The notes under the pieces: generated by a model
Seen by the model: only the letters and a program-made list of their open reading frames with translations
The model's database searches: none
What the model was told of the DNA's origin: nothing
Shown: positions 14,351 through 57,115 of the stretch, one piece after another
Position numbering within the stretch: the stretch's first letter is position 1
Layout: each line of letters begins with the position of its first letter
Assembly (NCBI GenBank): GCA_945860955.1
Contig: CAMATH010000021.1
Location: 1-64,000, forward strand
Reading direction: 5' to 3'
DNA: 64,000 nt
Source of the DNA: Planctomicrobium piriforme
GTDB taxonomy: Bacteria > Planctomycetota > Planctomycetia > Planctomycetales > Planctomycetaceae
Translations under genes and position numbers: made by a program

Positions 14351-14640
14351 TTGGGATCCTTTCGGATTCGTCGAGTCGTCGTGGAATCATCGCGTCAACT
14401 CAACCGGGCGATGTGCAGCATGGAGTGTAGGTTAAGTCAAGTGGATTGCCCAGTGCGTTCCCAGCGGGGCACGACGTGCTGACGTGCCGAAACGGGTGTG
14501 ACGGGAATGCACCGCCCCCTCGGCAAGCGGTCGCAATAACGCGGGAAATGAAGAGGATGAACAGGATTCCCTCTTTATGAATACCGCGAGATCGCGCGAC
14601 TCCGCAGGAGCGTCGTCGCGACATGTGGCGGACGGCGTTC
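14351..14640. other. Intergenic stretch with a short copy of the ATCCTCTTCATCC-type repeat
   Basis: No gene is supported. Positions 14547-14567 carry a 20-nt match to one arm of the dispersed repeat seen near 24.6-24.8 kb and 27.0 kb. The remainder should include the promoter of the desaturase gene. Confidence 0.5.
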
Positions 14641-15108: not shown

Positions 15109-15307
15109 ATCCGAGGCGCTGCGTCACTCGGCCGGATTCTGGTGAACTTGGTGACATTCCGCAAGAGATTCCACGGTCCACCTGGTTGATGCGTTCCCAG
15201 AAATCGTTTTTCACCGCGTGACATACGCCTGCCACTCTCGCCTGTATCATGTAGGTGATTTCCGATGCCGATCCCCGGTGTCGACGAGAGGCGTGTGAGG
15301 GACGGTC

Positions 15308-39449: not shown

Positions 39450-42400
39450 CTACGGCAATTCCAACAGTCCCGCCTGTCCGTTTGAGGTCTCATCAACAAT
39501 GATCTCACGTGACGTTTCCCGCCGCTTGTTGCGGAAGACGCCATTCGCCTTCAGCGTGTACTTGCCGAAGGGGACCTGCCTGATGACGAACTTTCCTTCG
39601 GCGTCGGTCTTTACGGACAAGGAGTTTTTGTCTGGGCCTGGGCCACGATCGCCTTCCTTTGCGGCTCCCGCCTTGCCGGCCGTCGCTCCTCCCTTGGGCG
39701 GATCGCCAGCACCCGCTGCACCCATGGCGGTTTCGGGAACGGGAATGAGGACCACGTCGACTTCAGGAACCGGGGTGCCGAAATACTCAACCCGGCCCCG
39801 CAGGATGGTTCGCTGAGCGGCTCGATCGCGGTCGAGGTCGGCTTGGGTTTCCAGCAACAGTGGCTGACGGGAGATTGGGCCGGCATTCCCCACCCGGTCA
39901 ATCGCCCGCAGCAGAACAAAATACTGTCCCGGTTTCAGTTCAGCCGTCGGTAGAGAGGCCTTCCAGCGACCGTCTTCATCTCGCGCGGCGGCAACCGGGG
40001 GAGGCTCTTTGACGAACTCACCGGTACCCGCCACGTCGAACGCGACTTCCACGCGGGCGACACCGGTTTGTTCTCCGTCGGTCGCCAGGGTGGTGATTTC
40101 CAATTCCGGCCCCACGATAGTCCGTTGGCTGGGGCCAACCACGACCCGCCGGATTCGCGGTCCCTCACCATCCAGAACCAGCTCCACCGGGCTGCTCCAC
40201 GAATCGCGGTCGGGAAGTACCGCATGAGCGATCAATTGCGGTCGTTCGTTACAGAGTCCGGTCAGCGGGAGAGAGACCGTGAAGTCACCGGCGCGGGCAT
40301 CCAGCACCACGCGGCCATCATCGGTGAAACCGCTGACAAACGTGCGGATCCGACGGTCGGTCGGGAATCGCAAACGCAAGTCCTCCTCCAGTTCTCGGTC
40401 CCGGTCGCGATCAATCCCGATCTCCCAGTAACCTCCCAGTTCGGGCATCCCGCCGGGTGGAGCGTCAATTTCCACGCGAGCCTTCACGGAGTCGAGCGGG
40501 CAGGGCAGTTCGGCACCATCCAGGGGATCGAGAATTCGGACCGCGAGCCGGGCGGTCTCTTCTTCGATCTCGCCGGGCGTCTGCGTGGCAGAAATCTGGT
40601 ACAGAAACGCCCGCGGGAAGCCGTCGACGGCGATCGCAAGTTGCAACGGTTCTTTTCCGGGCAGCGCGGCCAGCGTCAGACGAGATTCCGATGTACCGGC
40701 GGCAAGCTGAGCTACCACTCGGCGCGGAGTCGGATCGTTCGTCGAACGGGCGAGTTCACATTGCCAGTCGATCGCACGACCGGCTGCCACTCCCGGACGA
40801 CGCTTGAGTATCACGGAGATCAGATGTTCCTCCGCCGAGTACTCAACCCGGGGAATGACATATCGGCGGGGGCGTTGCACCATCAGATTGCACACGTGGA
40901 GCAGCGCATCGCCGGTTTCGACATCCGTGACAACAAACAACAACCCACCCGGGGTGGGGGCGTAACCGGGGAGCGGTCCGGTCTTTCCGACCGGTTTTTC
41001 GGTCCCGGGAGGAGCTGGTTTTGTTTCGGCAAGGTCTTCGAGCGGAGCGGGACCGGTCAATGGAACCGAGCGGGACGCTCCGTCCGCAAGCAGTTTGAAG
41101 GACGTGACTCGTGCGAGTTGTGGACCAGGATGGAGCTTTCGCAGCCATTCGTCAGCAAGTGCCGAGTCGATCGGACCGTCCGGGGGAGGAGCTTCGGGAG
41201 CGTGCGGCAGCGTGTACAATCGCACGTCAAACGTACGCGGCTTGCCCGTATTGCGAAGCAGAACCTGGAAAGCGTCGCGACGATTGGGGAAGGGATAGAG
41301 GACACTTCCCCCCGCAGTCGCATTCCAAATCCGGTCTGGAGCGGCGATGGTCAAATCGAAAGCCCGGGAAAGAGGCAGAGGGACATCGATCTCCGCGCGT
41401 TGCGTGTGCGGCGCGAACCCCAAAGTCCGATCGCTCGCGGGCGCTTCGTGTGATTCCCTCGTTGACGCGAGTTTCACGACGACCCGGGTGGGCCAGTCGC
41501 GCGCGCCCCGACGACGAATCACCAGGCGAAGGCGGCGCTCCGACTGGGCGGCGATTTTCAGCGATTGGCTCCCGGCTAGGCCGGCGAGCAGTTCGGCTTC
41601 GCGCCCGACCCGATCGAGACGTTTCCATTCGGGGCGCAATCGCTCGATTTTCGTCTGATCGTTAAACAGGTTTTCGTCTTCCGGAAGGAACTCAATGACA
41701 TCAGGGTCGTAATCAATGACCAGATGGACGGTCTGTTCGGTCGTGCCACGATTCACCACTTTGACTCGATAGGACAAAATGTCGGGTGATGAGTTGATGG
41801 GATCAAGCTCGGGAGAGATCACCAGCGCGATCGACTCAGATTGCCCCTCGGATCCAGCGGGAATGTTCGGGATCGAATCGACGGAGGTCGCCGACACCAG
41901 GGTTCGCAGTTTCGTGGAGTACGCCGCAAGATGTTCGAGTTCGGCGGGAGAGGCATCTTCCCGGGCGTCCCGCAGCGCGGTCAATTCGGCGATCAGCCAG
42001 TCGCGCCAGACCGCCTGCTCCATCCGCGCCAACCGCGTGTCGAGTTCGTTCGCGGACGTGTTATCACCCGGTAGAAGCGACAGGACCCGGGGTAACAACC
42101 GCAAGCTTTGAGATGGCACTCTGGCTCGCAGCCCGTTTTCCCGGAGGCGCGAATCCAATCCTTCCGCCCAGACGTGCCAAAGTTTTGAGAACCGTTGCGC
42201 GGCGGCGTGGGCTTCGGGAGACTCAGGAAAACTCCGCAGGTTGAGCGCCAGTTCGTCCAACTGACGCAACAGTTTGTTCGCGGCGGACGACTCGTTATCG
42301 GGTTCATCCGCTTCAGCCAACCGGGCCCAACGTGATTCGAGAGAGGCGAGCAGCGCGAATCGCTTGCGAGAGGTGAATTCTGCGATCGGACTGGGATTCG

Positions 42401-44672
42401 AAGCGACCTGAACCGCGAGATGGACGGCCTGAGTCTGCCGGTTGCGACTGTACTCCGCCAGCCAGGCAACCAGCGGAGGCCAGGCGGAAGGATCGACCAG
42501 AGATGTGGCCAGCAGGCCACGGATTTGCGAAGCACCGTCGACGGCATCTTCACGGCCAGGAGAATTCGCGAGCAACGCCTGTTGCGCTTCGGGTGTCACC
42601 CCCGACTCCACCGCGGCTCGTCGTGATTCCAGTCGAACCGTCAGATCTCGTAGTTCGGCGGCGCGGTCGGGGGAGGGCCTCTCGACAAGTTCCCGCAATC
42701 TGTGCAGATCGGTTAGCAATTCGTCCAAGGCGGCGAAGGGGGGGCCGGCGTTTGGGGAGTCGCTCGAGGCAACCCACCACCAGTTGATGTATTCACGGGT
42801 GCGCAACCAGAGGTTGCGCGTCAGGGCGCTGGCCTGGTCGTGATCGGTGAGACGGCTGGCTGCGTTTGTGACCAGACTGCGTGCGATCCGCACTGCCGTT
42901 TCCGCCCGTTCCCGACGATTCGACCGCAGGCCATCACGTAACAGCCGTTCAGACTCCCGTCGGGCCTTTCGCGCCTGCGCTAGATCCTCCGCGATCAATT
43001 CCCTGCGCCCCAGTCCGCGAATTGCGAGCTGGCACTCTGCACGCCGCATTTCCAGGAGCTTGCGCAGCAGCGGCCAGTCGAGGTCCGCAAGAGCCACCAG
43101 CTCTTCTGCACCATCCAACTCCTGGAACCTTTTGAAGGCCGGTGGAAGTTCACGCAACCATTCGTGGAAACCACCACGCTCGTCAGCAGCCAGAAACCCA
43201 TCCAGGCGGGTCAAGGCCTCGGCGATTTCCTTAGGGAGTGGCGTCGCGGAATCCAGGGCGAAAAACTCGTGGAGGGCGAGGCTCGGGTAATCTCCGGCCG
43301 CAATGCGCGAGGACCGAAGCCGATCGGCAAGCCGAGCCCCTTCACCTTCAGAGCTCGGTGGCACCTGAAGTTTTGGATCGAGGAGTGGCCGGAGTGGGGC
43401 GACGAAGAGTTCCAGGTCGCCCTGGTCGGTAACCGACCATCGCCCCTGGGTGGCGTGTAAGGCCGTCATCGCCCGCAGTTTCGCGTGAAACTGTCGCCAC
43501 AAATGGGGAGCCCGGACGACGGGAGACAAACCGGTCGTCGTTCGAGCGCCAAGTTCCCGATAGATCTTCCAGGCTTCGGCCAGCAGGCTGGCGGCCGCCG
43601 ATTCGTCTGCGAATGTTGCCGCTGGTTTGGCGGCATCGTCACTTTCGGATTCGGGAGCGGGGGAAGCCGCCGGGAGGTTTGCCAGTGCCCCCAGTGAATT
43701 CGTGTTGCGCGCCGGTGCCGGTGCCAGAACGCACGCCCGAGCCGCAGCATTGATCTGGTCGGCTTTGCCTCCCCAGAGCAGCCGTGGAGTCTGTGTTGCC
43801 ACACCGCGAGTCGACTCAAACACAGCCCGCGTGATCGATTCGGATGTGAACTGCGAAAGCTCTCTCAGGTCGATCTGGCGGTTGCCGTCGAAATCGGCGG
43901 CTCCCGTCAGACCCAACTCCAAAAAGAAGCCAAACAATGAACGCGTGGGGTCGCCGACAAGGTGCGACGTTTCGCCGCGCGAATGCGAGCAGAACACCCA
44001 CAGACGCGGGGTCTGGAATTCGCTCAGGCGTAGCAGTTCCGCCAGGCGAACGTCAAAGTCGTTTTCGATGAGGCCCCGATCGGGGATCGCTGACGCTTCG
44101 CCCGCGTCGAGCAGCACAACTACAGGGATCTCAGACTGCCTGAGCAGTTCACTGAGAAGTTCACGGACGGGCAACCGGCTGGTGCGTGAGGTCGGCCGCT
44201 GTCCGAAATCCCAGTCGAGATAGGGGATCTGTTGATCGACGACTCCCGTCGCGACGACCGACACGATGAGAACACCGCCCGGACTGGCGGGCGTGACCGA
44301 GAGCCGATCTCCCAGCCGCGTGAAGTCGGAGGGACCACGAAACGGTCCCGGGGAGAAGACGTTTTGCGGGTCGTGGCGACGCGCGATTTGCCATTCGACA
44401 CGGCGCAAGGCTTCTCGCTCGACGGTGACCCGGCGGCGGGGCGAGGAGCCAGGGTCGGCGAGGATCTCAGTGGAACCCGCCCCGGAGAGAAAGAGGATCT
44501 GCGGTCGCGCGTGTTGAAATGGGCGAGATACGAAGTAGGCGAAACCCAGCGCGCCGACCGTCAGGGCCACACCCAACGCAATCAGCCGCAGTTTGCGGTT
44601 GCGTCGAGAACGGGTTTGTCCCGTCGAGGCGTTGGGCCGCCACGTGTTCCATCCTCCGGTCACAGTCTTCAT
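39450..44672 (-). CDS. Giant anchored protein with degenerate caspase-like domain and Ig/carboxypeptidase-regulatory tail
   Basis: The 1740-residue protein has a basic N-terminus and one membrane helix (about residues 28-48). A caspase-like (C14) region follows (about 57-300), in which the usual catalytic His position reads VVATG (140-143) and the Cys position reads LLDAGEAS (187-194), so both catalytic residues are missing. The region ends in the EF-hand-like DFDGNRQIDLREL (260-272) and QTPRLLWGG, which is typical of this family. Next come long helical, Arg/Leu-rich segments (about 340-980), then Ig-like beta domains, and a carboxypeptidase-regulatory-like domain (about 1620-1740). It is a paralogue of the 1570-residue protein at 47506-52218, on the opposite strand. 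A scaffold role is inferred. Confidence 0.75.
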   Translation of the reverse strand: MKTVTGGWNTWRPNASTGQTRSRRNRKLRLIALGVALTVGALGFAYFVSRPFQHARPQILFLSGAGSTEILADPGSSPRRRVTVEREALRRVEWQIARRHDPQNVFSPGPFRGPSDFTRLGDRLSVTPASPGGVLIVSVVATGVVDQQIPYLDWDFGQRPTSRTSRLPVRELLSELLRQSEIPVVVLLDAGEASAIPDRGLIENDFDVRLAELLRLSEFQTPRLWVFCSHSRGETSHLVGDPTRSLFGFFLELGLTGAADFDGNRQIDLRELSQFTSESITRAVFESTRGVATQTPRLLWGGKADQINAAARACVLAPAPARNTNSLGALANLPAASPAPESESDDAAKPAATFADESAAASLLAEAWKIYRELGARTTTGLSPVVRAPHLWRQFHAKLRAMTALHATQGRWSVTDQGDLELFVAPLRPLLDPKLQVPPSSEGEGARLADRLRSSRIAAGDYPSLALHEFFALDSATPLPKEIAEALTRLDGFLAADERGGFHEWLRELPPAFKRFQELDGAEELVALADLDWPLLRKLLEMRRAECQLAIRGLGRRELIAEDLAQARKARRESERLLRDGLRSNRRERAETAVRIARSLVTNAASRLTDHDQASALTRNLWLRTREYINWWWVASSDSPNAGPPFAALDELLTDLHRLRELVERPSPDRAAELRDLTVRLESRRAAVESGVTPEAQQALLANSPGREDAVDGASQIRGLLATSLVDPSAWPPLVAWLAEYSRNRQTQAVHLAVQVASNPSPIAEFTSRKRFALLASLESRWARLAEADEPDNESSAANKLLRQLDELALNLRSFPESPEAHAAAQRFSKLWHVWAEGLDSRLRENGLRARVPSQSLRLLPRVLSLLPGDNTSANELDTRLARMEQAVWRDWLIAELTALRDAREDASPAELEHLAAYSTKLRTLVSATSVDSIPNIPAGSEGQSESIALVISPELDPINSSPDILSYRVKVVNRGTTEQTVHLVIDYDPDVIEFLPEDENLFNDQTKIERLRPEWKRLDRVGREAELLAGLAGSQSLKIAAQSERRLRLVIRRRGARDWPTRVVVKLASTRESHEAPASDRTLGFAPHTQRAEIDVPLPLSRAFDLTIAAPDRIWNATAGGSVLYPFPNRRDAFQVLLRNTGKPRTFDVRLYTLPHAPEAPPPDGPIDSALADEWLRKLHPGPQLARVTSFKLLADGASRSVPLTGPAPLEDLAETKPAPPGTEKPVGKTGPLPGYAPTPGGLLFVVTDVETGDALLHVCNLMVQRPRRYVIPRVEYSAEEHLISVILKRRPGVAAGRAIDWQCELARSTNDPTPRRVVAQLAAGTSESRLTLAALPGKEPLQLAIAVDGFPRAFLYQISATQTPGEIEEETARLAVRILDPLDGAELPCPLDSVKARVEIDAPPGGMPELGGYWEIGIDRDRDRELEEDLRLRFPTDRRIRTFVSGFTDDGRVVLDARAGDFTVSLPLTGLCNERPQLIAHAVLPDRDSWSSPVELVLDGEGPRIRRVVVGPSQRTIVGPELEITTLATDGEQTGVARVEVAFDVAGTGEFVKEPPPVAAARDEDGRWKASLPTAELKPGQYFVLLRAIDRVGNAGPISRQPLLLETQADLDRDRAAQRTILRGRVEYFGTPVPEVDVVLIPVPETAMGAAGAGDPPKGGATAGKAGAAKEGDRGPGPDKNSLSVKTDAEGKFVIRQVPFGKYTLKANGVFRNKRRETSREIIVDETSNGQAGLLELP

Positions 44673-44823
44673 CCCAGGGTGTAATGAAATGGCGACGGAA
44701 TTCCCCGCGCGAGTGGCCGGTCCGCCACAGTATCGTAACGCCCGCGACTTCCCGAGAGCAATTCAAGTTTCCCGGCGGACGGTTGGAGCCGCGCTGACGC
44801 TGGATCCCAGGAGAAATGGGTTT

Positions 44824-46203
44824 CTAATACGACCATTTCAATTCCACCCCGACTTGCTGCTGATACCAGCCGGTGTTGCTGGTGCAGAATCCCCCCGAAA
44901 TGCCGATTTCGCAAATTCCCAGATCCCCTTCCGGGCCCAGAACGAACCGGACTCCCGGGAGGATATTGGCGAAATTGGTGGAAGCGGACGCGAGCTTTCC
45001 GGCCGGAAGGACGGTGTTTCCCGCGTAGACTGGGAGCGTGGTTTGGCCGCCGTTGACGGAGTAGCCCATGATTTCGAGGATGGGCAGAATTGCGAACGAA
45101 TCGGTTTCGTACCAGACGTGACTGATACCAGCGCCGTAAGTGCCGACGTAGCCCGAGAAGTTCGCAGTTGATGCGAGGGGAATCCAATACTTGAACTGGC
45201 TGTGCAGGTAGGTACTGCAGCTCCAGCGATATCGCATCAGCAATCCCGGTTCCAGAGCCAGGTGACCGTTGGATGAGCCGGCGAAGGCCGATCCAGTCGC
45301 CAGAGCGGTCCGAAAGACCTGCGAGATCTGCCAGCGCTGACCGTCGACCAGCACGACCTTTGGCGTCAGGCTGATGTTTCCCAATCCCGACGACTGTCCA
45401 TTGATCTCAGAACTCAAAACCCGCATGGGAACTTCGGTGATGAAAGAAAATCTCCCCTGTCCAGCCTCCATCGTGAAGCGGAAGTCCTGATAGTCAACGT
45501 TGGTCTCGGCGAATTTCGGGCCGCTTCCACCGATTTTGGCCCACAAGTATTCGGCGCGATCCGGTGTCTGCAATCCAAAGGAAGATGCATACGCGAGCCG
45601 AACGTTGTTGGAGGGCTGCGACGGCTCGATCGCCATGGTGGCGAACATCACCCGCTCGTGACCGATGCCCACGTCGCCATTCGTCTGATTGAAATAGTGA
45701 AACCGTTCCAACGGCGACATCTCGTCGTCGCAGGCCAGGAACGGAAGCGAAACTTCCTCGGCGTACGGATCGACCGTATACATTTGTGGCTCGTGCCACA
45801 CGCCTGGTTCCGGGCTGGGAATCGGTTGGAATTCGGGCGAGGGAGGCAAGTCGGGGCCAGGGGGCATCAGTCGGGGAGGCAGGCCGACTGACTCTGACTC
45901 CTGCTGCCCGCCCGACAGGCCGATATCCGACACCGCCGGGAGATCTTCATCTTCAGCGACGTCGAAGATCACAGTACGGGTCCGGGGAACGAGATCTCGA
46001 ATCGTAGTGAATTCGACGTTTGGACGAAGTCCAGACGTTCCCTCGCCGGCCTGAGTGGGTGCGGAATGGGTGAACACCGTCGCCAGAAGCGTGGCCAGAA
46101 CGGTCTGGTAGAGGCCACGGCGGCGAATTCCCTTCGCGGTCTCATCAGAGACGGTCGACGAACCAGAACTCGTTCGACACACCGTCGGGGAATGACTGAG
46201 CAT
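44824..46203 (-). CDS. Predicted outer-membrane beta-barrel protein
   Basis: The 459-residue protein has a long N-region and signal peptide (cleavage near PTQAGEG, about residue 52), a Pro-rich linker, and then an alternating beta pattern with many aromatic strand ends. Examples are GLGNISLTPKVVLVDG, SQFKYWIPLA and a final VGVELKWSY, whose C-terminal aromatic residue is typical of outer-membrane barrels. I see no porin family signature. It lies 151 bp upstream of the 1740-residue gene start and is convergently or divergently arranged with the lipoprotein gene. An AGGGA precedes the ATG at 46203. It could be the outer-membrane partner of the neighbouring envelope genes; this is inferred only from position. 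Confidence 0.7.
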   Translation of the reverse strand: MLSHSPTVCRTSSGSSTVSDETAKGIRRRGLYQTVLATLLATVFTHSAPTQAGEGTSGLRPNVEFTTIRDLVPRTRTVIFDVAEDEDLPAVSDIGLSGGQQESESVGLPPRLMPPGPDLPPSPEFQPIPSPEPGVWHEPQMYTVDPYAEEVSLPFLACDDEMSPLERFHYFNQTNGDVGIGHERVMFATMAIEPSQPSNNVRLAYASSFGLQTPDRAEYLWAKIGGSGPKFAETNVDYQDFRFTMEAGQGRFSFITEVPMRVLSSEINGQSSGLGNISLTPKVVLVDGQRWQISQVFRTALATGSAFAGSSNGHLALEPGLLMRYRWSCSTYLHSQFKYWIPLASTANFSGYVGTYGAGISHVWYETDSFAILPILEIMGYSVNGGQTTLPVYAGNTVLPAGKLASASTNFANILPGVRFVLGPEGDLGICEIGISGGFCTSNTGWYQQQVGVELKWSY

Positions 46204-46466
46204 ACTCTAGGTCCCTTTTGTTCAGGACAACGCGAGGAGACTGCGTTTGGATCGAACGACCGTTGAATTTTCCGGTCAGATCAAGTGAATCGGTCGAACC
46301 GAAGGAATCGTCGGTTTTCAAATGAATCGACAGACGGCAGGGTGGAGTTCAATCCGTTTAATGACGGTTGTCGGTTTTGCATAAGCTGTAGCATTTTCTC
46401 CAGATATGCCGGCTGAGTCGACGATAACGAAGACGACCGTCCTTCGTTTTGAATTCGGAACTCAGC

Positions 46467-47333: not shown

Positions 47334-47505
47334 TCTCAGCGTCTAGTCGGGAACGAACGGTCTGGACAGTGCATCCAGGCGGGTTAGAATCGTGTTTCCG
47401 TAACGAATTGGGGGCGAGTGGTCGCTTGTCGCCAGCGCAGCCCCCGGGGGGGCGCCGCCTCGTCAGAATGTTTTCTACGCGATCGCGTGGAGAGGTCGAA
47501 TTGCG

Positions 47506-50500
47506 ATGACAACATCGGCGGAAGGTTCCGCGAGGCCGACTGGGTCGAACTGGCGAGGGGGGAAGAGCCCCACCGGCGCTGGAAAGTCGTCGCCAGAATG
47601 GCAGCGTGAGCCAGCATTGGCGGCAGGCGCGGACTCCACACACGGCAAGTTACGCAGTCTGTGGATCGCGGGCCTGTTGGGTGCCTGCCTGATCGGAGGG
47701 GGGTGGCTGACCTGGTTTGAGTGGCGTCCCAGCGCGAAATTGCCAATTCTGTCGGTAATGGAAGCGGACTACGACGATCCATTTCCTCCCAATTCCTGGG
47801 CGCGCGAAGATCGCGACGCGTACCAGACTCAAGGAGGCGGTCCCGCTCTGGACGGTGTCACAGTGCGGTTGTCTCGACACACGCTGACCGAGTTTTTGGG
47901 CGATTCGTCTCGGGCGCGCAATGGAAGCGGCACGCCCCCTGTTGCGGTGACCTATGTGTCGGCACATGGCTTGGTGAACTCACAAAATGAGCCGTGCCTG
48001 GCCGCGCGCGCGACCCGCGCGGACGACGATCGGAACTGGATCACACTGAGCCAGATCCTGAAACGCATCCGGCAGTCGCGGCCGCGCGGGCAGGTGTCAC
48101 TGCTCATTCTCGACAGCACCCGACATCCTCCTCTCGTGGAGGCCGGGCAGCTCGCCAGCGATTTTGTGGATCAAGTCATCGAGACCGTACGGGCGGAGGG
48201 AGGCGATGACCTTCTGGTTTTGACATCGGCGGGACACAGAGAACGAGCCTGGGGGGCACCCAGTTTTCGGGAGACTGTATTCGGCCACTTTCTGCGGCTG
48301 GGTTTGTCCGGATGTGCCGACCAGTCCGAGGGGAACCGGGACAGTCGAGTCTCGCTGAAGGAACTGGCGGCGTATGTCTCGAATGAAGTTGCCGGCTGGG
48401 CAGAAGCCAACCGAGGAGTGACGCAGCGGCCGCTCCTATTTGGGAAAATCGGTGGTGTTGAATTTCGCCCGGATGCTTCGGACACAACGGCTCTCTCTCA
48501 GGTTGTTCTGACCTGGACGCTTCCCGCCGAACAGTTGACCGAGATCGTCCAACGCCACAACAAGGATGCCAGTTCCGAGATGGAATCGCGCTCGCCTTCC
48601 GCGGAAGAGTTCGCGCAGGCATGGATGACCCTGAACAACCTTCAGAAGTCGGCATTGGGTACCAACGCGCTCAAAGTGGCTGGGCTGCGTCGCCAGCTTT
48701 GGCAGTTGGAACTGGAGGCCGACAGCGGTTCGCAATACGCCAGTCGCGTGAAAACCGGGCTCGATCACTGGAACCAGGAAGCAGCGGAACTCAAGTTGTC
48801 GTCGGTACCGTCGCAGGCCATTTCCCAAGGATTTCTGCCACCCGAAACTTCACCTGTGCCTTTGGGAGTATTTCTGGACCAGGTGGCGACACTTGCGGGA
48901 AACCGTGCAGCACCCAGCGAAGGACTGCTGAAGCTGGCGGAAGAATCGGCCCGGGCGGAGTCTCCCGCGGACGCGCGGGTCGCGCAGTGGATTTTGCCTC
49001 GATTAACCGTGGCCGCCGAGAAGCGGCGGCTGGCGGCCGACCGGGCGTTCGCGCTCGCGGCTCAAGTTGAAGCGAATCAAGAGTCGCGAATTGAAATTGC
49101 GGAATTGATCGCGGCGGCCAGGCGGGAATATGCCACGGCGCAACAGCTTAGCGACGAGATCGCGGGTGATTATGCGTTGTGCGATCACTGGGCGAACCGG
49201 TTGCCCATGTTTGTAAGATGGCTGCATTATGGTGGCCAGCCGGCAGACGACGCTGTCGTCAAAAACCTGTTGGCAATTGCCACTGCGGTCGTTCAACTGA
49301 ATGAGACCCTTGGTTCCGCAGCAGCGCAAACGGACGAGGCTGGTCCGTCGACCCAGCGGCTGGCAGCGCATCGCGAATTGTTGCACACCGCGACGGGAAC
49401 ATCACAAGGAACAACGATTTCGACGCTGGATGGGCTGGTCGACCGGGTCTATCAGCGATTACTTGCCCAGAATGCGCTGAGTGCCCCTGACATGGTCGAA
49501 ACTCAGGCTTTGCTGGCCTCCGGGCTGTTGCCGTCGGTCAGCGGACCCGACGGCAACCCGGTCACCCGTCGAGTCGAGCTGGAGCAGAAGTGTTCCAAGG
49601 TTCCCCAGTCCACAGTGGCCGGGGAACAACACTCCAAGAACGTTTTGTTCGGCGATCTTGAGAAAGTGGTTCAAAAACTGTTGGAACCTGCGTCTGCGGT
49701 TGCCGACGTCGATTCAAACGCTCGAACCGGGGAAGTGATTCGATTGAGTCTCAAACGGATCCAGGATGATCAATCCGCGGAATCCCCCGCATCTTCGCCG
49801 ACTAAGGCCAGTGATCCGTGGAAAGCCGACAACGCCGCCCGGACTGCCAGCGCCTATCTATGGCGATGTGACAGCCAAGCCCTGATTCACGACCGATTGC
49901 AGTACGAGGTGCAATGCCTGCAACTCGCTCGCGCCGTGACTGCACTCGATGACTTCTGGGGGAGAGCCGTGGCGGACGAAGCGCCTGTCTATGAACAGGC
50001 CGCGGTCGCGGCGCTGAAGGGGATTCCGTTTTCGCCGATTCACCGAGATTCGCGAAAACCTTGGTGGCGCGAACGACAGCACATCGTTGAGCGGCTGACT
50101 GACTATCGCCGGTTGAGCGAACACCTCATCAATCTCGAATCCGTGCCCCTGGTGGAGAAGGCGGGGTTGGATGAACTGGCGACTCAGATCCGATTCACTG
50201 CGAAACTGCCTGCCGAGAAACTGGTCGCGATTCCTGCAGGGACCGCCGTCGTGATCGCCCGGGACGTGGTCCGGGGTCTGCGGGGCAGCCGGAAGATCGA
50301 GGTCGATGGTCGGTTGAATTCGCGGCAGGTCAACGTGCCGTTGAATGCGGAGGAAATTGTGCCAGGAGAAGGAGGGGCTGAACCGGCCGCTTCAGCGGCG
50401 ACAGTTCCGTCAGGGGTCGCGACGCTGTTCTATCGGGGCCACGAGATTCAGGCCCCGCTCAAGATTCAGTCGGCGGACCGCACCGCGACGGTCTGGATGC

Positions 50501-52218
50501 CCCCACAGGTCGACCTGACACGGATCACTCTGCGGTCCACCGACCAGCAGCCGCAATGGGAAACGTTCATTCTCGACTGCTCGGCGAGCATGCGGGAGCC
50601 AGCACCATTCGAAGGGCAGGACCAGGGCGTCTCTCGATTTGAATCGGCTCGTGCCACACTCAATCAGCTTCTGGTGACGCTGGCCACACGCCAGGGAGAC
50701 CGGGTCGGGGTGATGCTGTACGGGCACCGGGTCGGCTGGAGTACGAAAGAGACAGGGCAGCTTCTGACTCAAACCGCCACCGATGTGAAGGTTCCGGAAG
50801 GGCTCATGCCGTACGAGGACGTCGAGTCCATCCTCCCCCTGGGACGGTTTGATGAAATCAACGCCGATCGTGTCCGGCGTCGCCTGGCTGCGGTGAAACC
50901 CTGGGGAGAGACACCGCTGTATCTGGCGATGACCCGAGCATTGGAGGAGCTGGGTCGCGAGGACCGTGGGGCGCAGCGCACGGTGATCGCGATTACCGAC
51001 GGGATGAACTACCAGTTCAATCCGACGCCGGAAAAGGCCCGGTCAGCCGACCAGGTGATCCGGGCAGCGGAAAAGCTGGGGGCACGGGTCTGTATCATCG
51101 GGTTCGGCATCGCACAGGCGGAAGCCGACGCGAGCCGACGGGAATACGAGCGGATTGCGAACAGCACCGGCGGGGTGTACGTGAATGTGCGGGATTCGCA
51201 GATGCTGCTGCGACAACTCGAGGAAATCCTCGGCCCCCGAGACTTCACGGTTCGTGACAATTCGGGAGAGACGCGACGCGAAGCGAAGGCGGGAGCGGGG
51301 CAGACAGTCGAATGGAAACTGACCGGCGGACGTCCTCAGGAGCTGGAGCTGCGTACTGATTTCCGCAGACAGAGTCTGAAAGTCTGGGGGGGGGAATCGC
51401 TGGAGCTACTCGAAACGCCAGGATCGTCTGAATTTCAGTCGGCCCCCTACGAGCGGGGTCTGATCCGTTACCATCGGCTGATCGACAGTTCCCGAACGGA
51501 TCTGGTCGGACTGCGACTGGGGGTGCATTCGCCCCGCCGCGATGGCAATCGCCTGGATTTCATTCTCTCCCTTCAAAACGCCGACGCGCGGTTTGTTTCC
51601 CGCCCCAGTGAAGTCTGGATCGAGATCACCCCGCTGGTGGGAGAAACACCACTGGAGACACACAAGATCCTGTTTCAGGATCTGTCATTCATGAATGGCA
51701 CGCCGGTTCCAGTACTCAAGATTCCCGCGACGCATTGGCCGGCGGAGGCGCGTCGGGCGCGCGTTGAGGCGTGGTGCCGGTGGGACGCTACAGCTCCTTC
51801 GCGGACGATTGAAGTCGCGTCGCTGCTGACTCCCGCGAGCGAACCCGCTGGGGACGAGGCGTGGCTGACACTGCCCGATGTCGAGGACTCGCAATATCGT
51901 GTCCGACTGGTGAAGGATTCTCCCTGGCGGGTTGAACTGGTGGAGAAATTCCCTCCGAATACCGTACCCCCTCTGCGTGTGGAACTGGCAGGAGGATTGC
52001 GTCCTTCCGAGGTCCGACGACAGTATTTTCCCGAAGCCGGACTGGCGCTGCATCAGTTTGAATTCAAAACACCCTTGCAGCTCCTGAGTAACGACCTGGA
52101 GTTGCGATTGGTCAGTCGTCCGCGAATGCAGCGCGACTCGGCACACTTGGAGTCGGCTGTTGAGGTCGTCGTTCCCCCGCCGTCAGATGCTTTGGCACCA
52201 AGTCTCGACCCTCAATAA
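47506..52218 (+). CDS. Giant anchored protein with degenerate caspase-like domain and VWA domain
   Basis: The 1570-residue protein has a basic tail, one membrane helix (about residues 50-69) and a caspase-like region (about 110-320). The catalytic His is kept (His154 in YVSAHGLVN), but the Cys position is occupied by Ser/Thr (ILDSTRHPP, 201-209). It ends in the EF-like RVSLKELAAYVSNEV block. A long helical middle follows (about 340-930). A VWA domain with a full MIDAS is at about 1018-1225 (Asp1024, Ser1026 and Ser1028 in DCSAS, a later Thr in GETPLY, and Asp in ITDGMNY). The C-terminus is beta-rich. A GGAGAGG lies about ten bases before the ATG. The gene is convergent with the tss-like operon; a metal-dependent ligand-binding scaffold is inferred. 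Confidence 0.78.
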   Translation: MTTSAEGSARPTGSNWRGGKSPTGAGKSSPEWQREPALAAGADSTHGKLRSLWIAGLLGACLIGGGWLTWFEWRPSAKLPILSVMEADYDDPFPPNSWAREDRDAYQTQGGGPALDGVTVRLSRHTLTEFLGDSSRARNGSGTPPVAVTYVSAHGLVNSQNEPCLAARATRADDDRNWITLSQILKRIRQSRPRGQVSLLILDSTRHPPLVEAGQLASDFVDQVIETVRAEGGDDLLVLTSAGHRERAWGAPSFRETVFGHFLRLGLSGCADQSEGNRDSRVSLKELAAYVSNEVAGWAEANRGVTQRPLLFGKIGGVEFRPDASDTTALSQVVLTWTLPAEQLTEIVQRHNKDASSEMESRSPSAEEFAQAWMTLNNLQKSALGTNALKVAGLRRQLWQLELEADSGSQYASRVKTGLDHWNQEAAELKLSSVPSQAISQGFLPPETSPVPLGVFLDQVATLAGNRAAPSEGLLKLAEESARAESPADARVAQWILPRLTVAAEKRRLAADRAFALAAQVEANQESRIEIAELIAAARREYATAQQLSDEIAGDYALCDHWANRLPMFVRWLHYGGQPADDAVVKNLLAIATAVVQLNETLGSAAAQTDEAGPSTQRLAAHRELLHTATGTSQGTTISTLDGLVDRVYQRLLAQNALSAPDMVETQALLASGLLPSVSGPDGNPVTRRVELEQKCSKVPQSTVAGEQHSKNVLFGDLEKVVQKLLEPASAVADVDSNARTGEVIRLSLKRIQDDQSAESPASSPTKASDPWKADNAARTASAYLWRCDSQALIHDRLQYEVQCLQLARAVTALDDFWGRAVADEAPVYEQAAVAALKGIPFSPIHRDSRKPWWRERQHIVERLTDYRRLSEHLINLESVPLVEKAGLDELATQIRFTAKLPAEKLVAIPAGTAVVIARDVVRGLRGSRKIEVDGRLNSRQVNVPLNAEEIVPGEGGAEPAASAATVPSGVATLFYRGHEIQAPLKIQSADRTATVWMPPQVDLTRITLRSTDQQPQWETFILDCSASMREPAPFEGQDQGVSRFESARATLNQLLVTLATRQGDRVGVMLYGHRVGWSTKETGQLLTQTATDVKVPEGLMPYEDVESILPLGRFDEINADRVRRRLAAVKPWGETPLYLAMTRALEELGREDRGAQRTVIAITDGMNYQFNPTPEKARSADQVIRAAEKLGARVCIIGFGIAQAEADASRREYERIANSTGGVYVNVRDSQMLLRQLEEILGPRDFTVRDNSGETRREAKAGAGQTVEWKLTGGRPQELELRTDFRRQSLKVWGGESLELLETPGSSEFQSAPYERGLIRYHRLIDSSRTDLVGLRLGVHSPRRDGNRLDFILSLQNADARFVSRPSEVWIEITPLVGETPLETHKILFQDLSFMNGTPVPVLKIPATHWPAEARRARVEAWCRWDATAPSRTIEVASLLTPASEPAGDEAWLTLPDVEDSQYRVRLVKDSPWRVELVEKFPPNTVPPLRVELAGGLRPSEVRRQYFPEAGLALHQFEFKTPLQLLSNDLELRLVSRPRMQRDSAHLESAVEVVVPPPSDALAPSLDPQ

Positions 52219-52294
52219 CCATGCGGGAGGGGGGCAGGCGGTGCCGGCTTTCAAACGGCGTCATCGACCCGATTCCCCATCTTGGCCAGCCGGC

Positions 52295-53191
52295 CTATCC
52301 TAGAGGCGCAGTGGCGGCCTGAATGGCGCGGTTGATGGCGTCACCCAGGATCGGTTCACGCTGATCGGGATTGATTTCGGCGGCCAGAAAGTTCCAGGCG
52401 GCATTCAGCGCTTTCGCCGTCAGGCCGGGCGCTGGAGCGATAACGGGTGTGCCGGGGGCCGTCAGACTCTCGCCACTCCAGACCGCTGCCAGCGCGACCC
52501 ACGCCGCCGCCGTCGATTGCTCATCGGACTCGACTCGCGATCGAACCGGCGACAGATTTTCGGCGGTCGGATCGGCGCCCCAGGCAGTTGTCGCTGACAG
52601 CAGTTCCTGTTCTGTCGTCGAGAGACTCTCGCCGCGGAGCAGGGTGAATTCCCGGGCGCTCCAGCCGACCAAACGGGATTTGCCCATCAGCGCGACCAGG
52701 ACCGACCAGGCGTCGGCCCAGAGTTTTTTGTCGACCAGTTTCAGCAGAAACTCGGTGACCTTGATTCCGTCCTCCAGCAGGCTCTTGGCACCGGGGCTCA
52801 AAGTCGCATGGGCACAGATAGTGCGCGCCTCGGGGACTGGTGGCGGTTGCGAAGGATCCTGGCCGGGCAGTGTTCCGAAAATCGATGCGGGGGCGGCTTC
52901 AAACTCCACCAGAAACTCGAGGCTGCCTGCCTGAATCTTCTGGTTGGAAAGGAGTTGCCGTTGTTTGACCGGTTCGCCGTCGACCTGAGTTCCCCGTCCT
53001 CGGGAGAGGTCAATCAAGATCACTCCCCGGGCGCTCGTCTCGAGCGAGAAGTGAATGTCGGCCAGGGCGGAATCGTAGGGAAACGCGCAGTCGGCCCAAT
53101 TGGTGCGGCCAAATCGAACCAGTTGTCCCGACCGAAGCAGAACGCTACTTCCCTTCTGGGGACCGTTTTGAATCGTCAGTCGGACTTCCAT
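52295..53191 (-). CDS. FHA-domain protein of the tss-like operon
   Basis: The 298-residue protein begins with an FHA fold (about residues 1-105): the conserved GR of RFGRTNW is present, but the usual Ser before the His (SxxH) reads LADIHF, and the N of the NG turn reads DG in GTQVDGEPV. Phosphothreonine recognition may therefore be altered or lost. The rest is helical and of unknown fold. FHA proteins such as Fha/TagH are known regulators of type VI secretion. The ATG at 53191 lies inside the end of the TssM-like gene (47-bp overlap); a longer reading to 53509 is not supported. Confidence 0.8.
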   Translation of the reverse strand: MEVRLTIQNGPQKGSSVLLRSGQLVRFGRTNWADCAFPYDSALADIHFSLETSARGVILIDLSRGRGTQVDGEPVKQRQLLSNQKIQAGSLEFLVEFEAAPASIFGTLPGQDPSQPPPVPEARTICAHATLSPGAKSLLEDGIKVTEFLLKLVDKKLWADAWSVLVALMGKSRLVGWSAREFTLLRGESLSTTEQELLSATTAWGADPTAENLSPVRSRVESDEQSTAAAWVALAAVWSGESLTAPGTPVIAPAPGLTAKALNAAWNFLAAEINPDQREPILGDAINRAIQAATAPLG

Positions 53192-54935
53192 CAATGGGCT
53201 TGCCGGTGCGAGGAGCGGATTCTGCCGACGAAGCACCACGCTCGCCAGCTTGCGATTGACGGGAGTCTGCCTGGGGATCGGCAGTCTTCGCGAACAGCGA
53301 GTCTTTGAACACGAGAATCGGAAACAGCAGGGCAAGCAACAGCGCGGCGATGGTCGCCACGAGTCCCAGCCGACGGACGCTTTGATCTTCCCGGACGGCT
53401 GCCGAATTCCATTCCAGCCGGTCTTGTTCGCCATCGATCTTTTCCAGAATTCCGCCAGTAAACGCGCGCTGGTCGGCGGAATTCCCCGTGGCGACGAAAT
53501 AACAACCACTGAAGAAATAAGGTGCCTGTTCGGGATCGGTTCGTTCGCTGTACCCGAATCCGTTGGACAGAATTCGGGCGAGCCGGCTCTTGAACCCCGA
53601 GCGGACCCGGCACAACAACGCGAACAAGGGGGAATTGCCAGGACGCTTCAGGACCTGGTCTTCGCGAAACAGGCCATAGACCCAGTCTTCAAAAACTCCG
53701 CAGACGTGGGACGCGAAGCTCTCCATCTCGGGACTGCTGGCGGGGGCACGCAAATCGTATCCCATTCCGAATCGACTGGCTTTCGACTTCTCGGGACCGA
53801 CCCGGCGCATCAGCTCACGGAACCCAGGCTCTGCCTGAAGCCCGGTGAACACCGCGATGACCGGAAACCGGATCTGCAAGGTCGCCTGGGCGGTCATGAG
53901 GTCGGCGTTCACCGCCTTTGAAATCTCCTCGATTTCAGTATCACTGGCACTCGCCGCGGCGAACGGCAACAGCATCAGGCAGCCGTTGACAGGGCAATAG
54001 GGGAAGCGGGCCGCCTTCGTCAGGTTGCAAATCGCTTCCAGACGTTCCTGTTGAAGCCGCGCATCGGACGAAGGGACGATCGCGGGGGTTTCGTCTTCGA
54101 TTTCCTGGTCGTCCCGCTGGTCGCCCGCCACGGGAGACCCCGAAATCGGGGCTGCTTCCGCGGGCTGGAACGCCATGAAGTTTTCGAGGCTGATCGACTG
54201 GGACGTGGACATTCCCGGTCCCGTCGCCGATTCTCCCAGCATCGCGGCACCGAAACCCTGGTTCGGGAGAAACGCGCCCGGACGAATTGTCGCCGAGGAG
54301 CGACCGTATCCGTCCACATCGGGCATCTCGGGGGACTGGTCGCCCCCCGCGCGCCGGTTCCCACGTCCGCGTCCGCGGAGATCAAGCAACCTCGCGACGG
54401 CGCTCATCCAGCCGGCGTCGGAACAACAGAGGAAGACCCGCTGACTGTCGACATACCACCGCAGGGGGCTGTCGCCGGTGGGTATTCCGCGAACGATCTT
54501 TCCGTCCGCCGCCCCCTCTAGAAACGCCCGTTCCATCGATTCGCCGGTCGAACCCAGAACCAGATAGACCGGGCGATCATTGAGATCAATTCCCTGTCGG
54601 CGGAGTTCGTCCCGCCCTGCGCGCCACGCCGAATCGAGATCGGGAAAAGGCGAAGATTCGGATTGGAACCACATTCGCAGAGCCTGATAGACGGCCACAG
54701 GAATCCCCACCATCAAAAGGAACACAAGAAGCTGTTGGTACCACGGCTGCGTCAGGCGCCACGCGACGTGCTGGGAATTCCACCGAGAATTGATCCAGGC
54801 GATCACCACGATGGCAAACAGCACGCAGGCGACAAAACAGGCGACGCGCGCAGGCAGCGACCAGGGACGAAGCAACCCGTGATACCACTTCTGAGGTGCG
54901 GGGGCTGCGGAATCGTCGGATGCGGGTGCAGACAT
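53145..54935 (-). CDS. TssM/IcmF-like protein, truncated
   Basis: The 596-residue protein has two N-terminal membrane helices (about 30-48 and 66-86), then a cytoplasmic IcmF-like domain. The segment RPVYLVLGSTGESMERAFLE stands where TssM has its P-loop, but the Lys is absent (GSTGESME, 128-135). Later FPVIAVFTGLQAEPGFREL matches the IcmF nucleotide-domain strand. A third helix (about 523-543) is followed by only about 53 residues, whereas TssM proteins of about 1100-1200 residues continue with a large periplasmic domain. It therefore resembles the inner-membrane half of TssM. It lies 66 bp downstream of tssL and overlaps the FHA gene. Confidence 0.75.
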   Translation of the reverse strand: MSAPASDDSAAPAPQKWYHGLLRPWSLPARVACFVACVLFAIVVIAWINSRWNSQHVAWRLTQPWYQQLLVFLLMVGIPVAVYQALRMWFQSESSPFPDLDSAWRAGRDELRRQGIDLNDRPVYLVLGSTGESMERAFLEGAADGKIVRGIPTGDSPLRWYVDSQRVFLCCSDAGWMSAVARLLDLRGRGRGNRRAGGDQSPEMPDVDGYGRSSATIRPGAFLPNQGFGAAMLGESATGPGMSTSQSISLENFMAFQPAEAAPISGSPVAGDQRDDQEIEDETPAIVPSSDARLQQERLEAICNLTKAARFPYCPVNGCLMLLPFAAASASDTEIEEISKAVNADLMTAQATLQIRFPVIAVFTGLQAEPGFRELMRRVGPEKSKASRFGMGYDLRAPASSPEMESFASHVCGVFEDWVYGLFREDQVLKRPGNSPLFALLCRVRSGFKSRLARILSNGFGYSERTDPEQAPYFFSGCYFVATGNSADQRAFTGGILEKIDGEQDRLEWNSAAVREDQSVRRLGLVATIAALLLALLFPILVFKDSLFAKTADPQADSRQSQAGERGASSAESAPRTGKPIDGSPTDDSKRSPEGK

Positions 54936-55001
54936 TCTCGGGCGTCGAATCGTGAAGAAACGGGAATCAACTCGGGCTGTCAGACGACACGGGGAGTGAA
55001 A

Positions 55002-55649
55002 TCACCCCCCGAGCGGCACGACACTTTTCAGCAGCCACACCACGTTGAGAACAAGCAGCACGGCTGCCGCCGCCACGAACCAGACAATTCGTGATCGATT
55101 CTTGCGCGGCGGCACTCCGACGATCTCCCGACGGGGGCGCGGCAGCGGGGCTCGCCCCTGACCCAGTCGAATCGCCAGCGCGGCCTGACGCGTCCACGTC
55201 ATCAGATCGGGGGGCAGTCCCAGCGCGGGGGTCAGGGCTTCGGCCAATCCCGGGTCGCGGTAGACTCCGCGAAAGCCCAGTACCACACAGTTGTAAAAGA
55301 CCTCCAGCGCATCACGGCGGGGCTGGGCGGCCGCCTCCTGCGCGCGAACGTAGAACCGTTCGTTGCACAGCCGAGTGTTGAAGTACTGGACTTCCAGCAC
55401 GTTGTTGCTCCACCAGTCACGCCCGACCCAGTCAGTTTCGACCAGCAGCTCATCAATCCACGACACCAGGGCGTACTTCGCGAGTTCCCACTCGGGCCCG
55501 GAGGTCGACGCCTCGGCGAGATCAATTGCGGTCGTCAAGCGAAATCGCTCGGACTGTGGCGACAGAGGCTGTCGCTGCTGAATCTGCTCCAACAGGTCGA
55601 GCATAGCCAAGAATACTGGATCGACCGCTTGTGCGAATTGTGGCGTCAT
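55002..55649 (-). CDS. tssL: TssL/DotU family inner-membrane protein
   Basis: The 215-residue protein has the TssL (DotU/IcmH) cytoplasmic hook: AKYALVSWIDELLVETDWVG, WWSNNVLEVQYFNTRL and YVRAQEAA, then FYNCVVLGFRGVY, with one C-terminal membrane helix (about residues 188-207) and a very short periplasmic tail. TssL binds TssM and TssK in type VI machines. It lacks a peptidoglycan-binding extension. The ATG at 55649 overlaps the tssK stop by 4 bp (ATGA). Confidence 0.9.
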   Translation of the reverse strand: MTPQFAQAVDPVFLAMLDLLEQIQQRQPLSPQSERFRLTTAIDLAEASTSGPEWELAKYALVSWIDELLVETDWVGRDWWSNNVLEVQYFNTRLCNERFYVRAQEAAAQPRRDALEVFYNCVVLGFRGVYRDPGLAEALTPALGLPPDLMTWTRQAALAIRLGQGRAPLPRPRREIVGVPPRKNRSRIVWFVAAAAVLLVLNVVWLLKSVVPLGG

Positions 55650-57115
55650 GAGTTTCGTGGGACCGCGAACAAAGCGAACTGCAACGGAACCCGTTTTCCG
55701 CGGGCGGAAACCTCCAACGTCTGCTGACCCTGTAACCGGTCGAGATTCATGATCAGCGAATCCCGCAGCCGCAACGCGAGTGTCTGTGTCATCTGCACAT
55801 CCCGCCAGGCCGGCTTTTCATCCCGTGGGATTTCGTAATACAGCCATTCGGATCGCGCGGGGAGCGCCCGGATCGGGCGGTCGACCGGAATGAGACTGAG
55901 TCCCTCGGCACGTTGTTTGAATAATGCCTCTACCATCCGCTCGCTGCCGAACTTCCAGTCGAGCTGGCCGGCCGAAAGCAAATCCAGGCACTCCTGCCTG
56001 GTGAGATCCCCCTTGTTCACACCGATGTACCATTCCCAGTCGGAATTGAACCATCGCGGATCCAAGGAGACCCGCATGCCCATTCCGACGCCAATGAACG
56101 GCCGTTTCTCGAACTCGAAATCGCGGACCGTGTAGATCAACGCTTCGATTCGCGTCAGCAGATTCCGAAAGATTGGTCCCAGATTATCGTGGTCGTAGAG
56201 GGGCAACTCCGCGGCCCGACGTTCGGGACTGAACAGCGAGAGTTGGCCGACGATCCCGCACAGTTCGCCATACGCCCACTGTGGGTGAATTCCTGGAGCG
56301 AACGCCAGCACCCGCAGAATCCCGTGGGCACGGTTGAGTTCTGACAACATCAGAATCCGTTCCAGATCACCCGGGTTCTGATTGTCCAATCCCACGCCGC
56401 GATTGATCACCTGCTGTCCCAGAACATCCATCTTGCGGCCGATGAGATCGTAGGCCGCACGAACAATGTCACGCCCCAGACCGGTCCAGGCATTGATCGC
56501 GATGACGGGAGGGACATAGTCGGAATCGACTTGGGGAACCGCTTCGCCTTCACCCGAACGCCGAATCTGGACAATCGGCAATGTCTCGTAGCCCGAGAGA
56601 TCCTGTGTCGACAGCATCAACCGGGCATTGAGCGAACGAAACGAAACGTCCTGGTCGTTGCCGCCCACGTTTTCGTCTTGAATCGGGGCGACCGTTTCGA
56701 CGTACCGGGTGGCCTCAGCCCCGCCTTCCATCCCCAGATTGCGACGCCCCAGTCGAGTGCGTGGAACCGCCAAGACCACCTGAACGACGGATGCTTTTTC
56801 AAATGCCTCCGCCAGCCCCGCGACCACCGAAGTCCCACCCAGCAACGGATCCTTGAGATCGACTCGGTCGGGTTCCGAATCGACCCCAAGCTCAACCAGC
56901 GTCCCGTCGCACAAGCGGGCACTGATCTGCTGAAGTTCGAATTTGTAATTGGCAATCGCCTCGTGACTGAAGGCGATACTTTTCAGTCCGTAGTGGCACG
57001 GATGGTCCCATTGCTCCGACTTGGAAACCAACTCGTTCCAGTGGCGCTCCGCCGACTGGAAATGCTGGGGACGAAGAAACAGGCCTTCGTGCCAATTGAT
57101 GGGAAGGTGCCGCAT
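55646..57115 (-). CDS. tssK: Type VI secretion baseplate protein TssK
   Basis: The 489-residue protein has the TssK signature at its very start (INWHEGLFLRPQHFQ), the three-domain length of the family, and later blocks such as WAYGELCGIVGQLSLFS, YDHDNLGPIF and YIGVNKGDLTRQECLD. In type VI systems TssK joins the baseplate to TssL and TssM in the membrane. The ATG at 57115 places this signature at residue 5; the longer frame to 57325 is not supported. It is the first gene of the operon tssK-tssL-tssM-like-FHA. No tail or sheath gene lies nearby, so what this adaptor connects is unclear. Confidence 0.92.
   Translation of the reverse strand: MRHLPINWHEGLFLRPQHFQSAERHWNELVSKSEQWDHPCHYGLKSIAFSHEAIANYKFELQQISARLCDGTLVELGVDSEPDRVDLKDPLLGGTSVVAGLAEAFEKASVVQVVLAVPRTRLGRRNLGMEGGAEATRYVETVAPIQDENVGGNDQDVSFRSLNARLMLSTQDLSGYETLPIVQIRRSGEGEAVPQVDSDYVPPVIAINAWTGLGRDIVRAAYDLIGRKMDVLGQQVINRGVGLDNQNPGDLERILMLSELNRAHGILRVLAFAPGIHPQWAYGELCGIVGQLSLFSPERRAAELPLYDHDNLGPIFRNLLTRIEALIYTVRDFEFEKRPFIGVGMGMRVSLDPRWFNSDWEWYIGVNKGDLTRQECLDLLSAGQLDWKFGSERMVEALFKQRAEGLSLIPVDRPIRALPARSEWLYYEIPRDEKPAWRDVQMTQTLALRLRDSLIMNLDRLQGQQTLEVSARGKRVPLQFALFAVPRNS

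What the first reader, a model, noticed from the sequence alone, without database searches (positions are those of the whole stretch)
39450..57115. Tail-less TssK-TssL-TssM-like-FHA system next to two giant pseudo-caspase proteins
A tight minus-strand operon carries tssK, tssL, a short TssM-like protein and an FHA protein, with ATGA and longer overlaps. It is convergent with a 1570-residue pseudo-caspase/VWA protein. Beside it lie a lipoprotein, a beta-barrel protein and a second 1740-residue pseudo-caspase protein. No TssB/C, Hcp, VgrG, TssE/F/G or ClpV is present. In known type VI systems TssK-L-M is the membrane docking part. Here it may dock a different machine, perhaps a trans-envelope complex using the giant proteins as periplasmic partners. 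This set is not one I know as a described system.
Basis: partly seen in the sequence, partly recalled or inferred. Interest (0 to 1): 0.88.

Follow-up and report, generated by a model that had tools for sequence, protein, structure and literature searches.

The report
Planctomycete T6SS with giant envelope proteins
This cluster is the membrane-side half of a complete type VI secretion system whose tail genes lie on another contig of the same genome, but the usual trans-envelope stalk (the end of TssM, and TssJ) is missing throughout this bacterial class and is most likely replaced by a pair of giant membrane-anchored proteins found only in genomes that have the system.

Summary
The genes are real and correctly placed, but "tail-less" is wrong. 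The same genome carries TssA-B-C-Hcp-TagJ-E-F-G-ClpV on contig C123 and VgrG on C40; the window supplies its only TssK, with TssL and TssM. In a close relative (a Schlesneria MAG) all of this lies within 43 kb on one contig, together with the window's whole gene set. So this is the docking half of an ordinary contractile tail.

What remains is unusual. In 22 of 22 relatives TssM stops right after its third membrane helix, about 600 residues short. The TssM C-terminal domain and TssJ are absent from all 99 class-level genomes searched, yet other classes of the phylum have full-length TssM. The two giants form a paired, homologous family: N-terminal membrane anchor, degenerate caspase-like domain, helical rod, beta-sandwich array; GiantA adds a VWA domain with an invariant MIDAS. 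Giants occur in 38 of 41 TssK-positive and 0 of 58 TssK-negative genomes, usually near T6SS genes, and their divergence tracks TssK, TssL and TssM. Best reading: a lineage-specific T6SS membrane complex in which the giants replace TssM's periplasmic part. Association is shown; function is inferred.

The parts
55646..57115 (-). TssK, baseplate-to-membrane adaptor; the only TssK in this genome
   Evidence: TIGR03353 2.3e-70 and PF05936 2.9e-64; ATG start; single copy genome-wide
55002..55649 (-). TssL/DotU, one C-terminal TM helix
   Evidence: PF09850 4.6e-31; TM at residue 188
53145..54935 (-). Short TssM: TM1, TM2, cytoplasmic IcmF-related domain without a Walker A motif, TM3, then stop; no periplasmic domain
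   Evidence: PF14331 3.1e-11; 22/22 relatives short; collinear with full-length TssM up to TM3, hhalign 99.6%; Walker A motif in 0 of 22
52295..53191 (-). FHA-domain protein with C-terminal DUF6931
   Evidence: PF00498 2.5e-5, PF16697 3.6e-8, PF22011 1.2e-22; ATG at 53191
47506..52218 (+). GiantA (1570 aa): N-terminal TM, degenerate caspase-like domain, helical rod, VWA domain inserted among beta-sandwiches
   Evidence: NF047832 5.8e-8, PF13519 3.9e-9; AF2 mean pLDDT 78; VWA matches with Z about 22; MIDAS conserved in 42/42
46449..47333 (+). HEAT-repeat lipoprotein, usually encoded between GiantB and GiantA in relatives
   Evidence: PF02985 4.3e-5; lipobox LASGC in the window sequence; lipobox in 19 of 24 homologues; gene order
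44824..46203 (-). Conserved beta-rich secreted protein, possibly an outer-membrane barrel
   Evidence: no Pfam match; alignment A4; strong homologues beside TssK or the giants in close relatives, weaker ones elsewhere
39450..44672 (-). GiantB (1740 aa): N-terminal TM, degenerate caspase-like domain, helical rod, Ig-like array, CarboxypepD_reg-like end
   Evidence: homologous to GiantA over the first half, hhalign 100%, E 3.7e-51; CarboxypepD_reg in 8 of 10; AF2 mean pLDDT 79

Best explanation
The window encodes the membrane side of a complete contractile type VI secretion system. TssK joins the baseplate encoded on contig C123 to TssL and the short TssM in the inner membrane. TssM here ends after TM3, and TssJ is absent. 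The trans-periplasmic part is most likely built instead from the two giants, anchored in the inner membrane by one N-terminal helix, with the HEAT-repeat lipoprotein as the outer-membrane-side anchor. The degenerate caspase-like domains would act as scaffolds rather than proteases, and the MIDAS-bearing VWA of GiantA would bind a partner or a surface ligand in a metal-dependent way. Shown: gene content, lineage-wide TssM truncation, co-occurrence, linkage, correlated divergence, domain architecture. Inferred: topology, contact with TssL/TssM, stalk function, the lipoprotein's location, and the roles of the VWA and caspase-like domains.
For: Complete tail set in the same genome with only TssK, L and M missing from C123. 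One-contig arrangement in the Schlesneria MAG; TssKLM next to TssA-G plus both giants, the barrel and the lipoprotein in G052. Short TssM in 22/22, aligned to full-length TssM only up to TM3. IcmF_C 0/99 and TssJ 0/99 with the E. coli control positive, while IcmF_C is found in other classes of the phylum. Giants in 38/41 TssK+ and 0/58 TssK- genomes, Fisher p 3e-24. 27 of 29 same-contig giants lie within 60 kb of TssK or TssB. GiantB-lipoprotein-GiantA order recurs in Rhodopirellula, Stieleria and others. Mantel r 0.77-0.88 against TssK/L/M; the two T6SSs of G063 each have their own giants. Precedent: Bacteroidota T6SSiii uses a different membrane complex including a VWA lipoprotein, TssR (PMC10781749).
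Against: No interaction or phenotype data. The giants show no sequence similarity to TssM's periplasmic domain. Three TssK+ genomes lack a full giant match (G039 is 78% complete; G098 also lacks TssB; G079 has a weaker match in a 1333-aa frame), and in G045 and G086 the giants are far from T6SS genes. The Fisher and Mantel tests ignore shared ancestry. The lipoprotein lacks a lipobox in 5 of 24 homologues.
Confidence: 0.6

Rival explanations
1. The giants are T6SS-associated contact-sensing or adhesion proteins that work with the system but are not structural parts of the trans-envelope complex. The VWA domain, close in fold to integrins and pilus-tip adhesins, would bind target cells or surfaces and trigger firing.
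For: VWA/hybrid-domain similarity to integrin beta and pilus adhesins; invariant MIDAS; a few giants are not physically linked to T6SS genes.
Against: It leaves the missing TssM periplasmic domain and TssJ unexplained; GiantB has no VWA yet is usually paired with GiantA.
Confidence: 0.2
2. An ordinary T6SS with a shortened TssM, in which known accessory parts suffice or an unrecognised small protein supplies the periplasmic domain. The giants would be envelope proteins inherited with the island without a T6SS-specific role.
For: TssJ is dispensable in some lineages such as Acinetobacter, and is not found in 27.5% of other TssM- and TssB-bearing genomes (PMC10564176).
Against: 0 of 58 T6SS-less relatives keep a giant; 38/41 co-occurrence and correlated divergence; TssM's periplasmic region is described as an essential determinant of T6SS function (PMC4256274).
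Confidence: 0.15
3. A tail-less TssK-L-M system docking a machine that is not a contractile tail.
For: No tail gene within the window.
Against: Complete tail genes in the same genome with this the only TssK; everything on one contig in the closest relative.
Confidence: 0.02

Closest known systems
Canonical T6SSi (TssJ-L-M membrane complex)
   Same: TssA, B, C, Hcp, E, F, G, ClpV, VgrG, TssK, TssL and the N-terminal half of TssM; FHA accessory; TagJ
   Different: No TssJ; TssM ends after TM3 and has no Walker A motif; two giant inner-membrane-anchored proteins and a HEAT-repeat lipoprotein present instead
Bacteroidota T6SSiii (TssN-Q-O-P-R complex, PMC10781749)
   Same: A lineage-specific membrane complex replaces TssJ/TssM; single-TM periplasmic proteins with beta domains; one component has a VWA domain; one is a lipoprotein
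   Different: T6SSiii lacks TssL and TssM altogether, and its parts are much smaller; in TssR the lipoprotein and VWA are one protein, here they are separate; homology to TssNQOPR was not tested
Acinetobacter T6SS without TssJ (PMC10564176)
   Same: TssJ absent; lineage-specific envelope proteins compensate
   Different: Acinetobacter keeps the TssM C-terminal domain
T6SS-related genes noted earlier in Rhodopirellula baltica (PMC2660368, PMC5394234)
   Same: Same class; T6SS presence reported
   Different: The passages read mention presence only; neither the short TssM nor the giants are described there
EACC1-associated caspase family (NF047832)
   Same: Weak domain match in GiantA (E 5.8e-8, below the curated cut-off)
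   Different: Catalytic Cys absent in the window protein; embedded in a 1570-aa membrane-anchored protein

Membership tests
Type VI secretion system (broad sense) | Contractile sheath TssB/TssC and tube Hcp | tested here: met
   G000 contig C123: TIGR03358 2e-59, TIGR03355 7.3e-214, PF05638 2.3e-35
Type VI secretion system (broad sense) | Baseplate TssE/F/G/K, TssA and ClpV | tested here: met
   C123; TssK in the window
Type VI secretion system (broad sense) | VgrG spike | tested here: met
   G000:C40:18505-19962, TIGR01646 1.3e-154
Type VI secretion system (broad sense) | PAAR tip protein | not tested
Canonical T6SSi membrane complex (TssJLM) | TssL | tested here: met
   PF09850 4.6e-31
Canonical T6SSi membrane complex (TssJLM) | TssM N-terminal part with three TM helices and IcmF-related domain | tested here: met
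   PF14331 in 22/22; TMs at 31, 68, 525; collinear with full-length TssM
Canonical T6SSi membrane complex (TssJLM) | TssM periplasmic/C-terminal domain (IcmF_C) | tested here: not met
   0 of 99 genomes, E. coli control positive; 22/22 TssM end after TM3
Canonical T6SSi membrane complex (TssJLM) | TssJ lipoprotein | tested here: not met
   0 of 99 genomes, E. coli control positive
T6SSiii (Bacteroidota) | Absence of TssL and TssM | tested here: not met
   TssL and short TssM present
T6SSiii (Bacteroidota) | TssN, O, P, Q, R present | not tested
   no profile run
Active caspase-like peptidase (C14) | His/Cys catalytic dyad | tested here: not met
   window GiantA H154/S204, GiantB neither; both residues in 15 of 42 GiantA and 0 of 27 GiantB
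VWA domain | Fold and MIDAS motif DxSxS...T/S...D | tested here: met
   PF13519 3.9e-9; VWA-fold rows at Z about 22, e.g. 4wfq 22.4 with 185 residues at 2.1 A; MIDAS in 42/42

The most novel reading that the evidence does not exclude
Planctomycetia have a separate T6SS subtype whose trans-envelope complex is built from a short TssM plus two giant caspase-like/VWA proteins and a HEAT-repeat lipoprotein, unrelated to the TssM periplasmic stalk and to TssJ: a third solution to anchoring a contractile tail, besides TssJLM and TssNQOPR.
Probability: 0.55. Interest if true: 0.82.

Novelty: new variant of a known kind. Interest (0 to 1): 0.7.

Why it matters
TssM's long periplasmic stalk is treated as the core of the T6SS envelope channel. 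A whole bacterial class that keeps the contractile tail but discards that stalk, and consistently carries two giant inner-membrane-anchored proteins in its place, would show that the envelope-crossing part is replaceable. It would also give cultivable, non-pathogenic organisms (Rhodopirellula, Stieleria) in which to test how a contractile tail is anchored in an atypical envelope. It would supply profiles to recognise these systems in planctomycete genomes, and a role for caspase-like/VWA giants that otherwise look like unexplained large proteins.

Tried and rejected
Tail-less system: rejected. TssM interrupted by a frameshift, as in Citrobacter rodentium (PMC4256274): rejected here because the DNA after the stop carries the FHA gene and all 22 relatives stop at the same place. 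Giants as divergent TssM periplasmic domains: profile-profile comparison with 14 full-length TssM from other classes of the phylum gave probabilities of 0.3% or less, and PDB sequence searches found only VWA-type matches for GiantA (E 2.9e-9 to 8.6e-3) and nothing significant for GiantB. Fold searches list only VWA/adhesin and Ig-like folds, with no TssM or TssJ row among those shown; the helical rods were barely tested. A phylum-wide search with the GiantA profile failed twice on the tool side. Literature: nothing found describing this arrangement in the held library, which lacks most subscription papers and preprints.

Full report
WHAT IS THERE. TssK 55646-57115, TssL 55002-55649, a 596-residue TssM-like protein 53145-54935 and an FHA/DUF6931 protein 52295-53191 form a minus-strand run. 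TssK and TssL overlap by ATGA, TssM and FHA by 47 bp. Convergent to it lies a 1570-aa protein (GiantA, 47506-52218), then a HEAT-repeat lipoprotein, a beta-rich secreted protein and a 1740-aa protein (GiantB, 39450-44672).

THE TAIL IS NOT MISSING. The genome (G000, 8.4 Mb in 282 contigs, 98.9% complete) has one TssK, in the window, and one TssB, on contig C123. C123 carries TssA, TssB, TssC, Hcp, TagJ/ImpE, TssE, TssF, TssG and ClpV in one run and lacks exactly TssK, L and M. VgrG is on C40. In G037, a Schlesneria MAG, the same genes lie on one contig: TssA to ClpV at 29.4-40.4 kb, VgrG at 50.2 kb, GiantB-barrel-lipoprotein-GiantA at 54.6-67.8 kb and FHA-TssM-L-K at 67.8-72.8 kb. Across 99 relatives, 39 of 41 TssK-positive genomes have TssB and none has TssB without TssK. 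Split T6SS loci are known (PMC2660368). Whether G000's contigs are adjacent is not known.

WHAT IS UNUSUAL: TssM AND TssJ. TssM-like proteins of 22 relatives (the window's included) are 483-596 aa, and the only TssM domain any of them matches is IcmF-related_N. Aligned to 14 full-length TssM (1054-1332 aa) from other classes of the phylum, they are collinear from the cytoplasmic domain to the third TM helix and then stop (hhalign 99.6%). The Walker A motif, present in 13 of those 14, is in none of the 22. The IcmF_C and TssJ families are absent from all 99 genomes while the E. coli control is positive. In a 216-genome sample of the phylum IcmF_C is found in other classes (17 genomes, 12 above the curated cut-off) and in none of this class. 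In model systems TssM has about 750 periplasmic residues, and disrupting the TssM-TssJ contact abolishes Hcp release (PMC4256274).

THE GIANTS TRACK THE SYSTEM. A profile of GiantA finds extended matches in 38 of 41 TssK-positive and 0 of 58 TssK-negative genomes (Fisher p 3e-24). The exceptions are a 78%-complete genome, one lacking TssB too, and one with a weaker match. TssK-negative genomes show only shorter caspase-domain matches. Of 29 genomes with a giant on the same contig as TssK or TssB, 27 have them within 60 kb. In named genomes (Rhodopirellula europaea, Rhodopirellula sp. SM50, Stieleria sedimenti, TBK1r, SV_7m_r) the order GiantB-HEAT protein-GiantA recurs (in R. europaea with GiantB inverted), often beside FHA and T6SS genes. 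Distances between GiantA or GiantB proteins correlate with those of TssK, TssL and TssM (Mantel r 0.77-0.88, n = 10). G063 (Pan216) has two T6SSs, each with its own giants; the second is closest to systems in G072 and in G043, a different family, for both TssK and GiantA, so giants follow the system rather than the species. These tests do not correct for shared ancestry, but presence is patchy even within the genus: G000 and G002 have both, G001 and G003 neither.

ANATOMY OF THE GIANTS. Both have one N-terminal TM helix, a caspase-like domain, a long helical region and a beta-sandwich array; they are homologous over roughly their first half. AlphaFold2 models of GiantA 381-1570 and GiantB 330-1500 have mean pLDDT 78 and 79. 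GiantA's C-terminal half contains a VWA domain among beta-sandwiches; VWA rows reach Z about 22 (for example 4wfq, Z 22.4, 185 residues, 2.1 A) and pilus adhesins and integrins are among the matches. Its MIDAS is complete in 42 of 42 homologues, whereas the caspase His/Cys pair is complete in 15 of 42 GiantA and 0 of 27 GiantB. This pattern suggests that metal-dependent binding is conserved and proteolysis is not. GiantB ends in Ig-like domains (Z up to 10.8, weak).

HOW IT MOST LIKELY WORKS. Shown: a complete T6SS gene set minus TssJ and the TssM stalk, plus two giants that occur only with it. Inferred: TssL and short TssM form the inner-membrane platform for TssK and the baseplate; the giants cross the periplasm; the lipoprotein (lipobox in 19 of 24 homologues) anchors the outer side; the VWA binds a partner or surface ligand. 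The nearest precedent is the Bacteroidota T6SSiii complex TssNQOPR, in which single-TM periplasmic proteins and a VWA-bearing lipoprotein (TssR) replace TssJLM (PMC10781749). The Acinetobacter system, which lacks TssJ but keeps TssM's C-terminal domain, is a weaker parallel (PMC10564176).

STATUS. It is a T6SS in the broad sense; it fails two tested features of the TssJLM membrane complex and does not match T6SSiii, which lacks TssL and TssM. T6SS genes in Rhodopirellula baltica have been reported (PMC2660368, PMC5394234), but no description of the short TssM or of the giants was found in the held library. It is best filed as a new variant of a known kind.

Noticed in passing
G063 (Pan216, CP036279.1), L059-L062: About 45 VgrG-family matches in one genome with two T6SSs, against one or two in the other T6SS-positive planctomycetes checked: a large VgrG expansion.
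   Followed up: no
L165 (Candidatus Kuenenia stuttgartiensis MAG) 6227-16932: A GiantA/GiantB-like pair with nearby FHA proteins in an anammox planctomycete; no T6SS gene was recognised within the 22.7 kb held.
   Followed up: partly
L035 2624-3949 and L036 1-2391: Near the C123 tail genes lie a class 3 lipase (2624-3949) and a protein kinase gene; the first could be an effector, the second part of FHA-linked control. Guess only.
   Followed up: no
window 53145-54935 and alignment A3: The short TssM has lost the Walker A motif that 13 of 14 full-length TssM of the same phylum keep.
   Followed up: yes
G098 contig C69 4896-5936: A TssK match without TssB, giant or IcmF_C in the genome; a degenerating or incompletely assembled system.
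   Followed up: no
G000 contig C8, 8840-21717: Three further caspase-like proteins of 535-655 aa in this genome, on a contig without the T6SS genes found here.
   Followed up: no
window 37148-39002: An ECF-type sigma factor and a radical SAM gene overlap by 8 bp just downstream of GiantB.
   Followed up: no
window 58123-60450: A 775-aa membrane protein with a C-terminal HlyD-like domain near tssK; a frame of the same length with the same first TM positions lies beside TssK in G002 (L083 10975-13302).
   Followed up: no
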